From Nostoc sp. FACHB-280 (GTDB lineage: Bacteria; Cyanobacteriota; Cyanobacteriia; Cyanobacteriales; Nostocaceae): a stretch of 64,000 bases of DNA. The translations under genes and the position numbers were made by a program. The notes under the pieces are model-generated. The model was not told the origin of the DNA. It made no database searches and saw nothing but the letters and a program-made list of their open reading frames with translations. Shown piece by piece: positions 3,565 through 54,130 of the stretch (position 1 is its first letter; every line of letters begins with the position of its first letter). The DNA is taken from positions 62,001 through 126,000 of the forward strand of contig NZ_JACJSD010000003.1 of assembly GCF_014697615.1 (NCBI RefSeq), given 5' to 3'.

Positions 3565-3653
3565 CTTTTTGGTTTTTTGTTTAGGTGTAGTTCTTTTATT
3601 TTAAATATTTGTAACCTTAGTTGTTTCGCTCTTATTTTTGTAAATAATTATTG

Positions 3654-4184
3654 CTAAGGTACTTGACCATCCACTTTTTCTATTTGGTCTCTAATATCAT
3701 TCAAATCTATATATCTGTCCGTAGCATTACGCAGCTCTCTGGCAATCATTCCTTCTGTAGACACTACTGTAATATGTGTATTTTTAGATCGTAATAGTTC
3801 AATAGCTCGTTCAAAATCACCATCACCACTAAATAAAACTACCCGATCGTACTGGTCTACAGTATTAAACATATCTACGACAATTTCTATATCTAAATTT
3901 GCTTTTTGGGAATAGCGACCGGAAGTATCATCATAGTATTCTTTGAGAATTTTCGTTCGGACTGTGTAACCTAGACTGATGAGAGCATCTCGGAAACCTC
4001 GTTGATCTTGCGGGTCTTTTAAGCCCGTGTACCAAAAAGCATTAATTAAAGTCGTCTCTGATTGCTCATGTTTGAAATATTCTAATACTCGCCGAGGGTC
4101 AAAAAACCAGCCATTTTTTTGTTGAGCATAGAACATATTATTTCCGTCTACAAAAATAGACAGACGATTCATAGGGGAACCCAT
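3654..4184 (-). CDS. NYN domain protein (LabA/DUF88-like putative RNase)
   Basis: A 176-residue NYN-domain protein of the PIN-like nuclease superfamily. The acidic residues expected of the active site are visible: FVDGNNMFYAQQ near the N terminus, LDIEIVVDMF in the middle and VVLFSGDGDFERAIELL near residues 115-131. Proteins of this group resemble LabA of Synechococcus, which affects circadian gene expression. The annotated start gives MGSPMNRLSIF; the internal Met4-5 region (MNRLSIF) is an equally good start. It lies upstream of leuA on the same strand, 89 bp away. RNase activity is inferred from the fold. Confidence 0.88.
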   Translation of the reverse strand: MGSPMNRLSIFVDGNNMFYAQQKNGWFFDPRRVLEYFKHEQSETTLINAFWYTGLKDPQDQRGFRDALISLGYTVRTKILKEYYDDTSGRYSQKANLDIEIVVDMFNTVDQYDRVVLFSGDGDFERAIELLRSKNTHITVVSTEGMIARELRNATDRYIDLNDIRDQIEKVDGQVP

Positions 4185-5163
4185 AAAAATTTACACCTAA
4201 AATATAGCAATGAATTTAGATTGAACAATAGATTATAGCAACTCTTAAATCATAAATTTGCTAATAGCTGGGAACGAGTTCCCCATGTATAGCCTTTATC
4301 TTACCTCTTGCAAAGCATAAATTTGACGCAAACATCAACCCAAGCTGCTGGGTGTGGGATAGTTTAACCTCTAACACTATATAAATATGTCCTATGATCA
4401 AAATCTACCAATAAAGTTGACTGAGTAACAGCATTCTTAGTGATATAAGTGTCAATTTTACTCCTAAAGAGGTAAGGCATCGGTCTGAAAGGAGGATATT
4501 GGCTAATGCTCATATATACATACAGTTGAGTTAAGTAAAGTTATCTGTTCAGGCAAATGTAGAAACGAGAGGAAACTGGGAATCAAAGGAGAGATTTCAA
4601 GTATATTAATCCACATATCGGTTTTCCTGTTAACAAAATCAGAGGCGTTTTGGCAAATGTAACCCGGACACAATCAGCTGGAGTCATTTCACAAATCAAG
4701 CTTACTGGATAATAATTTATAGGAGGCTCACATCGCATCTTGAGAGGTAAAAATCTTGCTGCTATGCAATGCAGAATCAGAATATCCTGACAACAGGAGA
4801 TGTTTAACTCAGGAGTGGAACCTCAGAAATAAACAATTAATTGTCTATCTCTGACACCTTTATATCCTTACACCATGAAATCAAGTTTCAGCGACAAATT
4901 TGCCACAACCTCAGCTTGTGCGGAGGGTATTGCCTGGCTTGGACTCCAGTAAATAAACAATCAATGCTCAAACTTACTCAGTAAATAACTCAGGCTGTCT
5001 TAGAGTTGAAAGCCTTTCCCATTTAGATTTGTCAAAATTTCCAGAGCCAGAGAAGATAGATTACAAATGTATAAGATTTTCATTGAAGTTTTATTTCAAT
5101 ATGTTTTTAGTAGAAATGAGACTAAATAAATCAAGTTGTCTGTAAACCAATTATTAACACGAT
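4185..5163. other. Long intergenic region upstream of the CHASE2 kinase
   Basis: 979 bp without a supportable gene, between divergent genes. Two tiny open frames were considered: near 4497 (7 codons, preceded by AAAGGAGG) and 4875-4952 (25 codons, no ribosome binding site). Neither can be supported. The sequence is of normal base composition and could hold a long 5' leader or a small RNA, but I see no clear terminator hairpin or conserved riboswitch core. Confidence 0.5.
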
Positions 5164-7491: not shown

Positions 7492-7827
7492 TTAACCAAC
7501 AGCATAATCAGTAAACTGACGCATATAAGGCGAATGAAAACCTAAAACAATATCTTGCTTCGGCACACCCAATTCTACTAAATCAGCAGCGATATCGTCT
7601 TCTGTACTATTCCATTGCAGCCAAATCTTTTCATTTTTAATATCTAAATGTATGACAGGGCCATAAACACGTCTTCGATTTCGCCAACCAACATAAAAAA
7701 GCTGATAATGGTCGTGTTCAGTATCAAAAATCAGTTGTACTTCTACATTATCTTCCTCTAAATCTCGCGCTGCATATTCTTTGAGTAATCTTTGGATATA
7801 CTCTCGATAGATATCTAGCTTTGCCAT
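7492..7827 (-). CDS. xisI: XisI family protein
   Basis: A 111-residue member of the XisI family, named after the fdxN-element excision controlling factor of Anabaena. Recognisable features are the N terminus (DIYREYIQRLLKEYA), DTEHDHYQLFYVGW in the middle, HLDIKNEKIWLQWNSTED, and the end IVLGFHSPYMRQFTDYAVG. It overlaps the 3' end of the xisH reading frame by 13 nt, the usual translationally coupled arrangement. The frame is intact although its partner is broken. Many xisH/xisI pairs exist in Nostoc genomes without an adjacent fdxN element; none is seen here. Confidence 0.93.
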   Translation of the reverse strand: MAKLDIYREYIQRLLKEYAARDLEEDNVEVQLIFDTEHDHYQLFYVGWRNRRRVYGPVIHLDIKNEKIWLQWNSTEDDIAADLVELGVPKQDIVLGFHSPYMRQFTDYAVG

Positions 7828-8229
7828 AGCACAACCTCTTCTTTTTCGTCATCAAAAATCAATAAATTGACTTGACTACGTTGAATGACTGCCTGCACAA
7901 ATGGCTGTGTCAAAAACTCATCATAAATGAGCCACGGTACCGCTAAGTATAAAACTTGTTCATAGCCAAAGTCAGTTAAAGCATAACGGTAGTTAATATA
8001 CTGCCCTATAGCTAAATGGAATTCAGCCATCGCAGAAGCACCCAAAAAACTTTTGACTTCAACTGCAATTTTCTGCCCATTGCGTTCAGCTTCAACCAGT
8101 TTTTCTGCTCCCAAGTCTATATTTAGTTGTAGAATTAATCCGAATGCGGAGAGGATCATGTGTAATTAGCCACCCGTCTTTTTGCAGGGCTATTTTAACT
8201 GCATCATGAAATTTATCTTTCGCTGACAT
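7815..8229 (-). pseudogene. xisH: XisH family gene interrupted by a frameshift
   Basis: The natural start is the ATG at 8227-8229, giving MSAKDKFHDAVKIALQKDGW and then LITHDPLRIRI, the expected XisH N terminus. This frame runs on out of register to a stop. The C-terminal part (LQLNIDLGAEKLVEAE, IAVEVKSFLGASAMAEF, VLYLAVPWLIYDEF) continues in another frame, which opens at 8159 with an accidental ATG. From 8229 to 7815 is 415 nt, one more than 138 codons including the stop, so a single inserted base near 8130-8160 explains it; restored, the protein has the family's usual length. XisH has a predicted PD-(D/E)XK-like core (AVEVKSF). A sequencing error cannot be excluded. Confidence 0.8.
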
Positions 8230-8305: not shown

Positions 8306-8416
8306 AGGCGGGTGCGGGAATTGAACCCGCTAGTCCCCGGAGATGGTGGAGACGTTAACCGATAACCCTAAATTCTTCGTCCGAAAGGGCAAGTTGCGAA
8401 CAAGGGATAACCCGCC
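8306..8416 (-). ncRNA. tRNA-like Y RNA, copy A (downstream of rsr)
   Basis: A 111-nt tRNA-like RNA gene. Acceptor strands GGCGGGT and ACCCGCC pair over 7 bp, and the T arm is canonical (GCGGG, loop TTCAATT, CCCGC). The Y-type module (about 8362-8409) lies directly after the 5' acceptor strand instead of in the anticodon stem. It has CCCTT pairing with AGGG, GTTC with GAAT, and the GGACGAAG motif opposite TTGCC. After it come a GGTTAA segment, like a reduced D loop, and a hairpin GTCTCC/GGGGAC with a 9-nt loop. Without the module only about 66 nt remain, so it is not a standard tRNA. It lies just downstream of rsr behind a long hairpin. Best explanation: a Ro60-associated Y RNA with tRNA mimicry. 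Confidence 0.75.
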
Positions 8417-8423
8417 GAGAAGT

Positions 8424-8463
8424 GTGAAGTATGAAGTATGAAATTTTATACTTCATACTTCAC
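8424..8463. terminator. Perfect 16-bp inverted repeat after rsr
   Basis: Arms 8424-8439 (GTGAAGTATGAAGTAT) and 8448-8463 are perfectly complementary with an 8-nt, partly self-complementary AT spacer. The hairpin starts 6 bp beyond the rsr stop codon and ends 8 bp before the 5' end of Y RNA copy A. There is no T-run, so it could be a processing or stabilising hairpin separating the mRNA from the RNA gene as much as a terminator. Each arm contains a near-tandem GAAGTAT heptamer, the unit type of cyanobacterial short tandem repeats. Confidence 0.55.
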
Positions 8464-8468
8464 AATTC

Positions 8469-10070
8469 TTACAGTTCACCTGTCGCTAACATTTGGATGA
8501 TGCGAGGTGTACCAGGGTCGAATCCTGCTAAGTCCCAAGACAGTGGATCTTGAGGATCTACCAAGGTGATGCGGTATGGTGTCAAGGTGACGTATACAGC
8601 CTTCACATTAGGATTGATTTTTTTGCGATACTCCTGCAAAGCTTGGCTAGGATGCTTGTAACCAGCCCAGCTTTCCGAGTCAGTCCAGAAGCAGACTACA
8701 TCAGCTTTGAATTTATTTTGAATCATCCAGTCATAAGCAACGGAGGCATCTGTCCCGCCAAAGTTTTGATTGCTGGCTTTACGCACAGCCGAACTAAAAC
8801 TATCTTTGGCGGTGATATCTAAGTCCCGAAACTCGTTAGCAAAACCGCGAATCATGTAGTTTTTCTCGGCTTTGGCTGTAACAAGTGCCATTGTGGTGGC
8901 AATTTCACAGCAACTTAGTCCCATGTCTGCAACTAAGCTACCCATCGAACCGGAAACGTCTACGGCGTGCATGAAAACTTTGCCTGTGGGTTCTACGACA
9001 TCAAAAGACAACTCAACGGCTTTTTCTAAGATGTCTACGATGCGAGGAACGGGAGTCCAAGTTTTCTTACTGCGTCCCAGTCTTCCCCCAGACTCGTAAG
9101 TTTTGAGGGCTTTCAAAACATCGATTGGGTGAATGCGACCTTTACGCAGATGTTCTTTATTGTTGAGAACTCCTTCCACTCTTAGCAAGTTGGCGCTTTC
9201 ATCAGCCCGTAATACGCCCAGTTCAGTTAGTGAACCCAGGTTACGCAGCATTGCACCGATGGGCATTTCTTGAAATAGCAACTGCCAAGCAGCTTTGTCC
9301 ATATTGCCCACGGGTGCAGCCATTTCGTGGGTTAAGCGTCCTTGCAAAATTGCTTCGTGAGTTTGCTCAGGGTTGCGCTTTAGCCATTCATACCACCAAA
9401 TCTGCGCCAATGCTTGCGAGGGTATCTCTGTGGGCAATTCCTCCCAACCTCTGACAACCCATTCAAATAATTGACGGTGATTTTCTGTAGGTGGTTTGAC
9501 GTGGAACAGGCGCAAAGCATCGCGGTGAGTGAAGCCTTGGCGTTGTTGATATTTCAAGAGTTGATAAGCCAAACCTTTGACATCTTCTCTTGATAGCCAA
9601 GTTTTACCTGCTTCCCGCACAACTTTACCAAAGCCCCGCAGAGATTTGGTGTAGTTCAACCATTCGTAGAAGTGGCTACCTGTACGGACAACTTGGGGAA
9701 AGATTTCCGCAAAAGCTTGTTTGGCTTCTTTTGTTTCACCCATCGACAGTAAGACCAAAGCTAGGATAGGTGCGCTGTTATAGATAGCTCGTCCATCGCT
9801 GGCATAAAGAATTTCTTCCGCTACACGGCTGGGATTTTCGGCAACAGCTTGGTTGACAACTGCTACAAAATCTTCAGTTAATTCTTGTTTACCAGCATAG
9901 TAGGTGCTTTGGGCTGTCCCAACTAACAGACAGCGCCGCAGCATCTTCCATAAGCCAGCATCAAACATCCAGCCACCGGAACGTCCTTTGATCATCTCGG
10001 TTTCCCGTCCGGGGATGGGCTGAGTTTGTGGCGTGCTGGTTTTGTTTCTGGTGAAGAAGTTGTAGTTCAT
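8469..10070 (-). CDS. rsr: Ro60 orthologue (Rsr), TROVE and vWA domain RNA-binding protein
   Basis: A 533-residue bacterial Ro60. The N-terminal two thirds is the TROVE domain, a ring of HEAT-like helices (YYAGKQELTEDFVAVVNQAV, EEILYASDGR, FTHRDALRLFHVKPP). The C-terminal third is a von Willebrand A-like domain with the MIDAS motif DVSGSMGS near residue 368 and FWTDSESWAG later. In Deinococcus, Rsr binds Y RNA, which tethers it to PNPase for degradation of structured RNA, and it helps survival after UV. The frame is open further upstream, but that part reads through Y RNA copy B; the ATG at 10068-10070, preceded by GGGAG, is the true start. Five tRNA-like RNAs flank it on the same strand. Confidence 0.96.
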   Translation of the reverse strand: MNYNFFTRNKTSTPQTQPIPGRETEMIKGRSGGWMFDAGLWKMLRRCLLVGTAQSTYYAGKQELTEDFVAVVNQAVAENPSRVAEEILYASDGRAIYNSAPILALVLLSMGETKEAKQAFAEIFPQVVRTGSHFYEWLNYTKSLRGFGKVVREAGKTWLSREDVKGLAYQLLKYQQRQGFTHRDALRLFHVKPPTENHRQLFEWVVRGWEELPTEIPSQALAQIWWYEWLKRNPEQTHEAILQGRLTHEMAAPVGNMDKAAWQLLFQEMPIGAMLRNLGSLTELGVLRADESANLLRVEGVLNNKEHLRKGRIHPIDVLKALKTYESGGRLGRSKKTWTPVPRIVDILEKAVELSFDVVEPTGKVFMHAVDVSGSMGSLVADMGLSCCEIATTMALVTAKAEKNYMIRGFANEFRDLDITAKDSFSSAVRKASNQNFGGTDASVAYDWMIQNKFKADVVCFWTDSESWAGYKHPSQALQEYRKKINPNVKAVYVTLTPYRITLVDPQDPLSWDLAGFDPGTPRIIQMLATGEL

Positions 10071-10107
10071 GGTTTCATCTCCCGGCCCTTGCGGGCAAAA
10101 ATGAAAG

Positions 10108-10231
10108 GTGGCAGGGCAGGATTTGAACCTGCGACATCCCGCTTGGAAGGCGATAACCCTCATTCTTCGGCCTTTGCAGGCAAGGGGTGAACAAGGATGT
10201 TTAGGCGCTCTACCTACTGAGCTACCTGCCA
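10108..10231 (-). ncRNA. tRNA-like Y RNA, copy B (Gly-UCC-type anticodon loop)
   Basis: 124 nt, ending 37 bp before the rsr start codon. The tRNA body is complete: acceptor TGGCAGG/CCTGCCA, T8-A9, D arm GCTC..GAGC with GG in the loop, T arm GCAGG-TTCAAAT-CCTGC. The anticodon arm is CC|CGC, loop CTTCCAA, GCGGG, and a 51-nt module (10153-10203) separates bases 28 and 29; removing it restores a perfect 5-bp stem. The module folds as nested pairs: CCTT/GAGG, GTTC/GAAT, then GCC-TGCAAA-GGC followed by CGAAG. TTGCC facing GGCCGAA is like the Ro60-binding helix of Y RNAs. Discriminator is C and no CCA tail is encoded. The identical acceptors of copies B and D argue against true decoding tRNAs. Confidence 0.8.
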
Positions 10232-10291
10232 CATGAAGAATTTTGGATTTTAGATTTTAGATTTTGGATTAAATCTAAAATTAAGTTTTGG
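10232..10291. repeat. Heptamer-repeat spacer between Y RNAs B and C
   Basis: An AT-rich spacer with four tandem heptamers of the type ATTTTRG (about 10242-10270), followed by their near complement (AAATCTAAAATT). The spacer between copies C and D (10413-10457) contains the same ATTTTGG units. Similar spacers suggest that the RNA genes multiplied together with their flanks. Such heptamers are the short tandem repeats common in heterocystous cyanobacteria. Confidence 0.6.
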
Positions 10292-10412
10292 GTGGCGGAG
10301 CAGGATTTGAACCTGCGACCTCTCGAACCCTAATCGATAACCCTCAATTCGTCGGCCTTTGCAGGCAAGGAGTGAATAAGGGTAAAGCACTCTACCACTG
10401 AGCTACCCGCCA
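10292..10412 (-). ncRNA. tRNA-like Y RNA, copy C (AGG anticodon position)
   Basis: 121 nt. Acceptor TGGCGGG/TCCGCCA (one G-U), D arm GCTC..GAGT, T arm GCAGG-TTCAAAT-CCTGC. The anticodon stem is CT|CGA with TCGAG around the loop TTAGGGT, perfectly paired once the 49-nt module (10337-10385) is removed; the module again lies between positions 28 and 29. In the module, ATTC replaces GTTC opposite GAAT and CCC replaces CCT opposite GGG, changes that improve pairing and so support the fold. The motif here is GGCCGACG. An A34 Pro-type anticodon would be rare in bacteria, another sign that this is a mimic. Confidence 0.78.
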
Positions 10413-10457
10413 CACAAAAATTTTGGATTTTGGATTAAATTTAAAATGAAATTTGGT

Positions 10458-10582
10458 GTGGCAGGATAGGAATCGAACCTACAACCCTCCCGATTATGAG
10501 TCGATAACCCTCATTCGTCGGCCTTTGCAGGCAAGGAGTGAACAAAGATGTTTTTGGCGCTCTACCATTGAGCTACCTGCCA
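10458..10582 (-). ncRNA. tRNA-like Y RNA, copy D (CAU anticodon position)
   Basis: 125 nt. Acceptor TGGCAGG/CCTGCCA identical to copy B, D arm GCTC..GAGC with GG, T arm GTAGG-TTCGATT-CCTAT. The anticodon stem CC|CGA with TCGGG encloses CTCATAA and is perfect after removal of a 52-nt module (10504-10555) at position 28/29. The module shares the TTGCC-TGCAAA-GGCCGACG core. Wobble changes (CATCTTT for CATCCTT) keep the lower stem paired with GAGGG. The CAU triplet would belong to tRNA-Met or lysidine tRNA-Ile, yet the acceptor and discriminator C match copy B, so aminoacylation identity is doubtful. Confidence 0.78.
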
Positions 10583-10620
10583 CATAAGAATTATTTTTTA
10601 CTCAGCACTTTGTTTGGAGT

Positions 10621-10749
10621 GTAGCGGAGCAGGATTTTCACCTGCATCTCCAGAATTTTGTCTCAAGGATGTTTAAGTTATTTGCGATAACCCTTGATGT
10701 GTCGGCCTTTGCAGGCAAGGGGGCGCTCTGGTATTTGAGCTATCCGCTA
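10621..10749 (-). ncRNA. tRNA-like Y RNA, copy E (divergent)
   Basis: 129 nt, first of the array as transcribed. Acceptor TAGCGGA/TCCGCTA pairs perfectly; the D stem GCTC/GAGC encloses a loop lacking the GG pair; the T loop is TGAAAAT, not TTCRANT. The module (10687-10721) is shortened: CCCTT pairs directly with AAGGG around TTGCC-TGCAAA-GGCCGAC. The segment AAACATCCTTGA, which begins the module in copies B and D, appears here after the module, as if rearranged. No regular anticodon arm can be drawn, so this copy cannot be a decoding tRNA. It keeps the Y-type core, suggesting the module rather than the tRNA body is under selection. Confidence 0.68.
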
Positions 10750-10792
10750 CAGTTTTTGGCTAACTCCTTTGGGAAAATCAGCTTGTAGTATT

Positions 10793-10821
10793 AATGTAAT
10801 ATATGTAGTTTTAAACGTCAA
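10793..10821 (-). promoter_or_regulatory. Predicted promoter of the Y RNA-rsr cluster
   Basis: On the minus strand TTGACG (10816-10821) and TACATT (10793-10798) are separated by 17 bp, close to the housekeeping sigma consensus. Transcription would begin near 10786, some 35-40 nt before the acceptor stem of copy E, and could run through copies E, D, C and B into rsr. No terminator is visible between the copies, so one primary transcript processed by tRNA-type enzymes is plausible. Confidence 0.6.
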
Positions 10822-54059: not shown

Positions 54060-54130
54060 AGCGGGCGGCGGGAATCGAACCCGCATTAATAGCTTGGAAG
54101 GCTATAGTTTTACCACTAAACTACGCCCGC
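54060..54130 (-). tRNA. tRNA-Gly (UCC)
   Basis: 71 nt including the discriminator. Acceptor GCGGGCG/CGCCCGC, D loop with GTGG, anticodon arm CTATAGC-type stem around loop CTTCCAA, T arm GCGGG-TTCGATT-CCCGC, discriminator T, no encoded CCA. It is a normal uninterrupted tRNA and a useful contrast to Y RNA copy B, which has the same anticodon loop but different acceptor, discriminator and an inserted module. Confidence 0.96.

What the first reader, a model, noticed from the sequence alone, without database searches (positions are those of the whole stretch)
8306..10821. Ro60 (rsr) embedded in an array of five tRNA-like Y RNAs
The TROVE/vWA protein gene is flanked on the same strand by five RNA genes that combine a tRNA-like acceptor and T arm with a hairpin resembling the Ro60-binding helix of Y RNAs (TTGCC facing GGCCGAA/GGCCGAC). 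It is established that bacterial Y RNAs are encoded near Ro60 and that some mimic tRNA (YrlA). Five copies arranged around one rsr, four probably in one transcript with it, is a much larger set than the one or two I recall for other bacteria. It suggests a family of interchangeable guide or gate RNAs for one Ro60 ring.
Basis: partly seen in the sequence, partly recalled or inferred. Interest (0 to 1): 0.92.

Follow-up and report, generated by a model that had tools for sequence, protein, structure and literature searches.

The report
Ro60 gene with tRNA-mimic Y RNAs
A Nostoc-type cyanobacterium carries, around its gene for the RNA-binding ring protein Ro60, a row of small RNAs that look like transfer RNAs with a Ro60-binding hairpin built in, and the Ro60 message itself starts with a look-alike of that hairpin, which suggests a self-regulating system connected with transfer RNA care.

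Summary
Five same-strand RNAs (8307-8416, 10109-10231, 10293-10412, 10459-10582, 10622-10749, all -) flank an intact rsr (8469-10070). They combine a tRNA acceptor and T arm with a hairpin carrying the conserved Ro60-site pattern; four also have a D arm. Such arrays are usual in cyanobacteria: 330 matches in 81 of 82 rsr loci, 0-7 per locus, mode 4, all on the rsr strand.

(1) The RNAs are circularly permuted relative to the known tRNA-like Y RNA, YrlA; a profile rotated at the Y loop aligns better in 7 of 9 phage and plasmid rsr loci. (2) About half carry a small anticodon-like hairpin with U33, varied triplets and the tRNA 36/37 rule. (3) rsr's own leader holds the Y core beside the ribosome site: 82 of 82 loci, and 19 of 29 in a more distant set. 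(4) rsr and rtcB co-occur.

Best reading: bacterial Ro60/Y RNA, a known kind, in a new variant, probably autoregulated and linked to tRNA damage. Binding, expression and function are untested.

The parts
10622..10749 (-). tRNA-like Y RNA 5 (first in the array): 7-bp acceptor, D arm, Y core TTGCC-TGCAAA-GGCCGA, T arm; lower Y stem rearranged to the 3' side
   Evidence: R1 47.5 bits; sequence; fold z -2.85
10459..10582 (-). tRNA-like Y RNA 4: acceptor, D arm, Y hairpin, anticodon-like hairpin CGA-CTCATAA-TCG (triplet CAT), T arm, followed by C-ACCA
   Evidence: R1 124.9 bits; RF00005 33.8 bits in the genome scan
10293..10412 (-). tRNA-like Y RNA 3: as above, anticodon-like hairpin CGA-TTAGGGT-TCG (triplet AGG)
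   Evidence: RF00005 42.7 bits, over gathering; R1 124.0 bits
10109..10231 (-). tRNA-like Y RNA 2, next to rsr: anticodon-like hairpin CGC-CTTCCAA-GCG (triplet TCC)
   Evidence: R1 141.4 bits
10071..10108 (-). rsr leader hairpin: Y core TTGCC-CGCAAG-GGCCGG running into the ribosome-binding GGGAG, outer stem TTTCAT/ATGAAA
   Evidence: pattern in 82 of 82 rsr leaders and 1 of 370 other ORF leaders; fold z -2.41
8469..10070 (-). rsr, Ro60 orthologue of 533 aa with TROVE and vWA domains
   Evidence: Pfam; 2nvo E 1.4e-73, 1yvp E 4.4e-72; the histidine of the Xenopus RLSHIKP stretch is kept
8307..8416 (-). tRNA-like Y RNA 1, after rsr: acceptor GGCGGGT/ACCCGCC, T arm and Y core, no D arm
   Evidence: R1 50.1 bits; one of 48 copies of this class

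Best explanation
This is a Ro60 (Rsr) ribonucleoprotein locus of a cyanobacterium. The five RNAs are Y RNAs: the internal hairpin TTGCC...GGCCGA binds the outside of the Rsr ring (inferred from the conserved Ro60-site pattern), and the rest of each RNA is a tRNA mimic with acceptor, T arm, usually a D arm and often an anticodon-like loop. The tRNA half decides what the Rsr particle meets: enzymes and nucleases that recognise tRNA, as YrlA is described to be a substrate of tRNA-modifying enzymes and to tether PNPase. rsr carries a look-alike of the core hairpin in its leader next to the ribosome-binding site, so Rsr in excess over Y RNA should bind its own message and stop translation; this would hold Rsr and Y RNAs in balance. 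Shown here by sequence comparison: the anatomy, its conservation, the circular permutation relative to YrlA, the leader element, the co-occurrence with rtcB. Inferred: Rsr binding, autoregulation, a role in tRNA damage or decay.
For: Covariation of the whole fold. 330 matches in 81 of 82 loci, all on the rsr strand. In 291 genomes of the class a strong match (at least 62 bits, a cut-off chosen after seeing that ordinary tRNAs reach about 59) occurs in 52; 51 of these are among the 58 genomes with the rsr vWA domain, and the 52nd (G265) has an rsr-like frame beside it by tblastn. The core has an unpaired C (A in some loci); a bulged cytosine is described as the primary Ro60 site and as kept in bacterial Y RNAs (PMC4030889, passages). 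Leader element: 82 of 82; closing pair always paired (CG 49, TA 30, TG 3; 82 against shuffled mean 64, max 70); more distant set 19 of 29. rtcB in 53 of 58 genomes with rsr against 78 of 233 without; order rtcB - Y RNA - rsr on one strand in G115, G152, G211, G265, G276, G288 (positions; rsr of G265).
Against: No expression or binding data. The leader pattern was written after looking at the leaders, most loci are related Nostocales, and of ten misses in the more distant set three (L149, L150, L157; rsr 59-60% identical) show no such hairpin and one (L146) is doubtful. Seven genomes with rsr lack a strong match (G010, G025, G040, G059, G225, G251, G267), though weaker ones (46-58 bits) lie beside rsr in three of them (L135, L136, L153). 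rtcB is not seen beside rsr in this window.
Confidence: 0.6

Rival explanations
1. The anticodon-like loops are the point: the array is a set of decoys or sensors for anticodon nucleases, each copy showing a different isotype's loop, held by Rsr and served by the RtcB repair pathway.
For: Distinct loops: T33 in 44 of 54; among those, G36 goes with G37 in 11 of 13 and other bases at 36 with G37 in only 2 of 31 (p 7e-7), the rule seen in 45 ordinary tRNA loops of this genome (12 of 12 and 0 of 33). 30 different triplets among 57 distinct upstream hairpins. The same hairpin occurs in actinophage and Nonomuraea Y RNAs. rsr and rtcB co-occur. Hughes et al. propose that YrlA may competitively inhibit the anticodon nuclease (PMC7790460, passages).
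Against: Only 134 of 264 upstream copies with the anchor have a pairable hairpin there; other types lack it. The triplets could be relics of tRNA ancestry. YrlA itself was not cut by the anticodon nuclease (same passages). No nuclease was tested here.
Confidence: 0.3
2. They are interchangeable gate or tether RNAs: each tRNA-like half recruits a different partner or controls access to the Rsr ring.
For: Copies are diverse in D arm, variable arm and anticodon-like loop; the YrlA tRNA-like domain is described as the PNPase-binding effector domain (PMC8394870, passages).
Against: No partner identified; diversity could be drift.
Confidence: 0.3
3. They are tRNA genes interrupted by a Y hairpin that is removed to give decoding tRNAs.
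For: Taking out the hairpin of 10109-10231 would leave a continuous anticodon stem and a 7-nt loop (sequence); CCA is encoded two bases after the acceptor stem in 93 of 324 distinct copies and one base after it in 36.
Against: Ordinary tRNAs with the same anticodons exist elsewhere in the genome (AGG itself was not among those seen, other Pro anticodons were); no-D and Y5-type copies could hardly give a tRNA; an eighth acceptor pair G-C is present in 220 of 324, unusual for elongator tRNAs (recalled).
Confidence: 0.05
4. The rsr leader hairpin is only a conserved ribosome-site hairpin and not an Rsr target.
For: Its 3' side differs from the RNA core (mostly GGCCGG or GGCTGG instead of GGCCGA) because it runs into the ribosome-binding site; it is absent from three distant cyanobacterial rsr genes.
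Against: Same TTGCC / unpaired base arrangement and loop-closing pair changes as the RNAs; 1 of 370 other leaders has the pattern.
Confidence: 0.25

Closest known systems
YrlA, Rfam RF02553 (bacterial tRNA-like Y RNA)
   Same: Encoded by rsr; Ro60-binding stem plus D, T and acceptor arms; the Rfam model aligns over its full length across two neighbouring copies.
   Different: Circularly permuted: YrlA has its ends in the Y stem and a closed acceptor; here the ends are in the acceptor and the Y stem is a closed internal hairpin. Below the Rfam threshold. The described YrlA similarity covers D, T and acceptor arms (PMC8394870, passages); about half of the copies here also carry an anticodon-like loop.
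Actinophage and Nonomuraea Y RNAs near Ro-like genes
   Same: GGTTAYC motif, T and D arms, anticodon-like loop with T33.
   Different: Permuted, YrlA-like order; in Nonomuraea and in phage Cashline tandem copies also allow the linear reading.
S. Typhimurium rsr-yrlBA-rtcBA RNA repair operon (PMC7790460, passages)
   Same: rsr, Y RNAs and rtcB belong together; in cyanobacteria by co-occurrence and, in six genomes, by neighbourhood.
   Different: No rtcB was seen beside rsr in this window: of the four RtcB matches in the genome the three listed lie on other contigs. RtcR was not looked for.
tRNA (RF00005)
   Same: Acceptor, D and T arms; one copy passes the tRNA threshold in the window scan.
   Different: A Y hairpin lies between the D arm and the small anticodon-like hairpin; ARAGORN finds none of the five.

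Membership tests
Bacterial Y RNA (broad sense) | Encoded beside a Ro60 gene | tested here: met
Bacterial Y RNA (broad sense) | Conserved stem with a single unpaired cytosine (Ro60 site) | tested here: met
   Alignment A1, helix 5: TTGCC against GG[C/A]CGA; definition from PMC4030889 (passages)
Bacterial Y RNA (broad sense) | Bound by Rsr in the cell | not testable with these tools
   Needs pull-down
YrlA (RF02553) | Score at or above the curated threshold (69 bits) | tested here: not met
   Best 34.3 bits in the window, across two copies
YrlA (RF02553) | Large stem formed by the 5' and 3' ends | tested here: not met
   Ends pair as acceptor; the Y stem is internal; true transcript ends unknown
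YrlA (RF02553) | D, T and acceptor arms | tested here: met
   Four of five window copies have all three; 8307-8416 lacks the D arm
YrlA (RF02553) | Tether to PNPase | not testable with these tools
   -
tRNA | RF00005 threshold | tested here: inconclusive
   Met for 10292-10412 and, in the genome scan, 10460-10581; not for the other three
tRNA | Regular anticodon arm directly after the D arm | tested here: not met
   Y hairpin precedes a 3-bp anticodon-like hairpin
Ro60/Rsr protein | TROVE and vWA domains | tested here: met

The most novel reading that the evidence does not exclude
Cyanobacteria (and, in permuted form, actinophages) keep banks of Ro60-bound tRNA mimics that display true anticodon loops of many isotypes, turning over their triplets while keeping U33 and the 36/37 rule. 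The bank serves as bait or sensor for anticodon-cutting nucleases, linked to RtcB repair, and Rsr sets its own level through a Y-RNA mimic in its leader. The tandem array also shows how YrlA could arise: any stretch from one Y loop to the next is already a circularly permuted unit.
Probability: 0.25. Interest if true: 0.88.

Novelty: new variant of a known kind. Interest (0 to 1): 0.72.

Why it matters
What Ro60 and Y RNAs do in bacteria is still largely open. A clade with usually 3-6 tRNA-mimic Y RNAs per rsr, many with anticodon-like loops, and with a laboratory strain among its members (Picosynechococcus PCC 7002 has three such RNAs and a leader variant), gives a direct way to test tRNA mimicry, and the leader hairpin gives a simple test of Rsr autoregulation. 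The unpermuted order makes sense of the layout of YrlA and explains why Rfam's YrlA model does not reach its threshold on the cyanobacterial loci scanned here.

Tried and rejected
A regex and pairing scan found 199 plausible copies (208 before a length and loop filter); it missed types without the exact core and was replaced by the covariance model. Single-sequence folding alone was not convincing and was not relied on. PADLOC gave no match for rsr or the XisH/XisI pair. Promoter and terminator scans gave no more sites than shuffles; a weak promoter-like site at 10821-10793 (-) precedes the array. The mismatch search that led to the leader was by itself not significant (21 matches in the genome, 17 for the reversed pattern). 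Natural permuted segments were aligned (A5) but no model was built from them, because the spacer region aligned badly; a rotated sequence profile was used instead. A test of the leader in more actinobacterial genomes could not be made. Outside cyanobacteria only Nonomuraea shows by eye a Y-like hairpin before rsr; Bosea, phages Sparky (46), Mareelih (76), Cashline (77), LinStu (78) and FuzzBuster (94) show none, Rhizobium (66) is unclear, and the Karp leader was not read. The main papers on bacterial Y RNAs (Chen 2014, Sim and Wolin 2018, Wang 2018, Sim 2020, Burroughs and Aravind 2016) are not held; they may already mention cyanobacterial arrays, so novelty is judged only against the searches.
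Full report
What is there. The window lies in genome G000, contig C37. The closest named rsr, 98% identical as protein, is from Nostoc sp. FACHB-110. On the minus strand, reading 5' to 3', come four RNAs (10749-10622, 10582-10459, 10412-10293, 10231-10109), a 38-nt leader, rsr (10070-8469) and a fifth RNA (8416-8307). Gaps are 38-61 nt, so one transcript is plausible but not shown. rsr is a regular Ro60 orthologue.

Anatomy. The three best copies (10109-10231, 10293-10412, 10459-10582) read: 7-bp acceptor, TA, D arm, linker, Y hairpin (consensus CCTTGTTC...TTGCC-loop-GGCCGA..GAATGAGG), the constant GGTTATCG, a small hairpin, T arm, acceptor. Copy 10622-10749 keeps acceptor, D and T arms and the Y core but has its lower Y stem rearranged. 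Copy 8307-8416 has no D arm. The three were aligned with 49 relatives: 52 rows, picked by me from 76 non-redundant copies of 113 distinct ones of the right length. RNAalifold, given no structure, found acceptor, D, Y, small-hairpin and T helices, with double changes at 17 of 33 pairs. With one more pair added to the small hairpin, 98.2% of cells pair and 129 cells carry double changes, against 38.7 expected from shuffles; sliding the structure by 1-3 columns drops pairing to 38-51%. The acceptor and T stems had been used to choose rows; the other helices had not. The weakest helix is the small hairpin (91% paired).

Ro60 site. The core pairs TTGCC with GG-CGA around one unpaired C (A in some loci). 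The bulged cytosine is described as the primary Ro60 site and as kept in bacterial Y RNAs (PMC4030889, passages). The same passages name a conserved histidine (H187) that contacts Y RNA; I take it to be that of the Xenopus stretch RLSHIKP, which reads RLFHVKP here (alignment; the identification is my reading).

Spread. One scan of named genomes gave 80 rsr loci (the best 80 of 164). With a plasmid locus of Picosynechococcus PCC 7002 and the window, 82 loci were searched with the covariance model R1: 331 matches, of which one ordinary tRNA (54061-54130) was dropped, leaving 330 in 81 loci (none in L061), 0 to 7 per locus, mode 4, every one on the strand of rsr. Of these 269 lie upstream and 61 downstream of the rsr start. 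Some loci end at contig ends and flanks were at most 5 kb, so counts are minima. In 291 genomes of the class the model hits every genome, because it also matches ordinary tRNAs up to about 59 bits; matches of at least 62 bits occur in 52, and 51 of these are among the 58 genomes with the vWA_Ro60 domain (57 over its cut-off). The exception, G265, has an rsr-like frame near its RNA by tblastn (64% identity). Seven rsr genomes lack a strong match; three of them have weaker ones beside rsr (46-58 bits), one is cut by a contig end (G010), and three were not examined (G059, G251, G267). Of 30 further rsr regions fetched from class members, 29 have at least one match.

Circular permutation. Rfam's YrlA model matched the window at 34.3 bits (threshold 69), and over its full length it ran from the 3' half of one copy into the 5' half of the next (10344 to 10174). 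The same bridging was seen in L019 (twice), L040 and L051 out of six loci scanned, and in PCC 7002 (3614-3744). YrlA is thus T arm - acceptor - D arm with its ends in the Y stem; here the order is acceptor - D arm - Y stem - T arm - acceptor. As a test, 141 copies were rotated at the Y loop in a script and made into a profile. In nine non-cyanobacterial rsr loci the best rotated matches were: L088 52.7 bits (unrotated 30.1, plus 12.4 in a second piece), L087 35.0 (27.0, 24.6), L092 33.7 (18.5, 9.3), L090 33.0 (19.0, 13.3), L089 29.3 (12.9), L085 26.1 (16.2), L084 20.6 (11.9); L086 gave no match with E up to 1 and L091 none better than E 0.13; reversed sequences gave none. So the two forms are one family in two circular orders. 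A tandem array contains the permuted unit between any two neighbouring Y loops (187 spacers, median 51 nt, shortest 7), which offers a simple route from one form to the other. The direction is not shown.

Anticodon-like loop. After GGTTAT a 7-nt loop is often closed by CGN/N'CG. The T at the position of U33 is invariant in the 52 aligned copies. Without requiring it, 57 of 159 distinct upstream 13-mers (134 of 264 copies with the anchor) have two inner pairs (shuffled mean 35.4, max 48); T33 in 49 of 57, purine 37 in 53 of 57, 30 different triplets. Among distinct loops of copies at least 115 nt long, 44 of 54 have T33; there G36 goes with G37 in 11 of 13, and other bases at 36 go with G37 in 2 of 31. 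Forty-five ordinary tRNA loops of this genome (of 67 genes listed) follow the rule 12 of 12 and 0 of 33. Nine of the 44 loops equal one of those ordinary loops. In the non-cyanobacterial loci, 9 of 11 GGTTAY sites followed by a T arm have such a hairpin with T33 (L085, L087 twice, L088 twice, L089 twice, L090, L092); the two in L086 do not, and one of the L088 sites (4023) may belong to an ordinary tRNA. About half of the cyanobacterial copies do not have the hairpin at this place.

Acceptor end. An eighth pair G-C is present in 220 of 324 distinct copies. CCA follows the 7-bp stem after two bases in 93 and after one base in 36; at five other offsets it occurs 0-14 times. An 8+5 helix recalls tRNA-Sec and tRNA-His (recalled) and could keep the RNAs out of translation; this is inference.

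Leader. A mismatch search of the genome for the core pointed to a further copy just before rsr. In the 80 loci, the window and PCC 7002 (82 of 82) a hairpin of the form TTGCC-loop-GGCCGG (with variants) ends 7-18 nt before the rsr start, at 11 nt in 64, running into the purine-rich ribosome site; 1 of 370 leaders of other mechanical ORFs of 150 codons or more in the same loci has the pattern. The loop-closing pair is CG 49, TA 30, TG 3, all pairs; shuffled mean 64, maximum 70. The pattern was written after seeing these leaders. In 30 rsr regions of other class members, one (L152) held no rsr start; of the other 29, 19 fit a near-identical pattern, two of them with a leader already in the first set (L143 as in L083, L153 as in L052). 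Of the ten misses six show by eye a variant hairpin (L132 GCCC-GGAA-GGGC; L134, L137, L141, L148, L156 CCC-loop-GGGAC), one is doubtful (L146) and three show none (L149, L150, L157; rsr 59-60% identical). My reading is autoregulation by Rsr; a plain ribosome-site hairpin is the rival.

Context. rtcB occurs in 53 of 58 rsr genomes and 78 of 233 others (p 2e-16, not corrected for kinship). In six genomes rtcB, Y RNA and rsr lie in this order on one strand (positions). A TROVE gene rose strongly with erythromycin in Chlorogloeopsis (PMC6424891, passage), and a TROVE and an RtcB gene were among the top rises in a cyanobacterial coculture (PMC11423583, passage). In Salmonella the rsr-yrlBA-rtcBA operon responds to tRNA fragments (PMC7790460, passages). 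All this points to tRNA damage, without proving it.

Verdict. A real and well conserved Ro60/Y RNA locus, a new variant of a known kind. Secure: anatomy, conservation, permutation relative to YrlA, the leader element as a sequence feature. Probable: Rsr binding. Open: autoregulation, decoy or gate function. Whether the arrays are already in print could not be settled because the key papers are not held.

Noticed in passing
   Followed up: yes
window 8417-8470: Long near-perfect inverted repeat between rsr and the last RNA (chance Rfam microRNA matches); could be a processing site or a small mobile repeat.
   Followed up: no
window 7492-8159 (-): XisI and XisH homologues directly after the array.
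   Followed up: no
L088 4191-4279 (Gordonia phage Mareelih): Annotated as tRNA-Leu(gag) but overlaps the permuted tRNA-like Y RNA match at 4214-4315.
   Followed up: partly
L087 2920-2965 (Nonomuraea): Y-like hairpin with outer stem CCTTTCG/CGAAAGG just before the rsr start: possible parallel to the cyanobacterial leader.
   Followed up: partly
L052 4606, L053 4650, L057 4279: Some copies resemble Leu-type tRNAs with a long variable arm, another a Glu-type D arm with triplet TTC (isotype likeness recalled): copies may derive from different tRNA isotypes.
   Followed up: partly
G000 contig C41 6852-16805: Dense row of ordinary tRNA genes (27 by ARAGORN in 10.3 kb), several with anticodons also found in single tRNA genes elsewhere.
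   Followed up: no
window 3654-4184 (-): NYN-domain (LabA-like) putative nuclease gene about 4 kb after the array.
   Followed up: no
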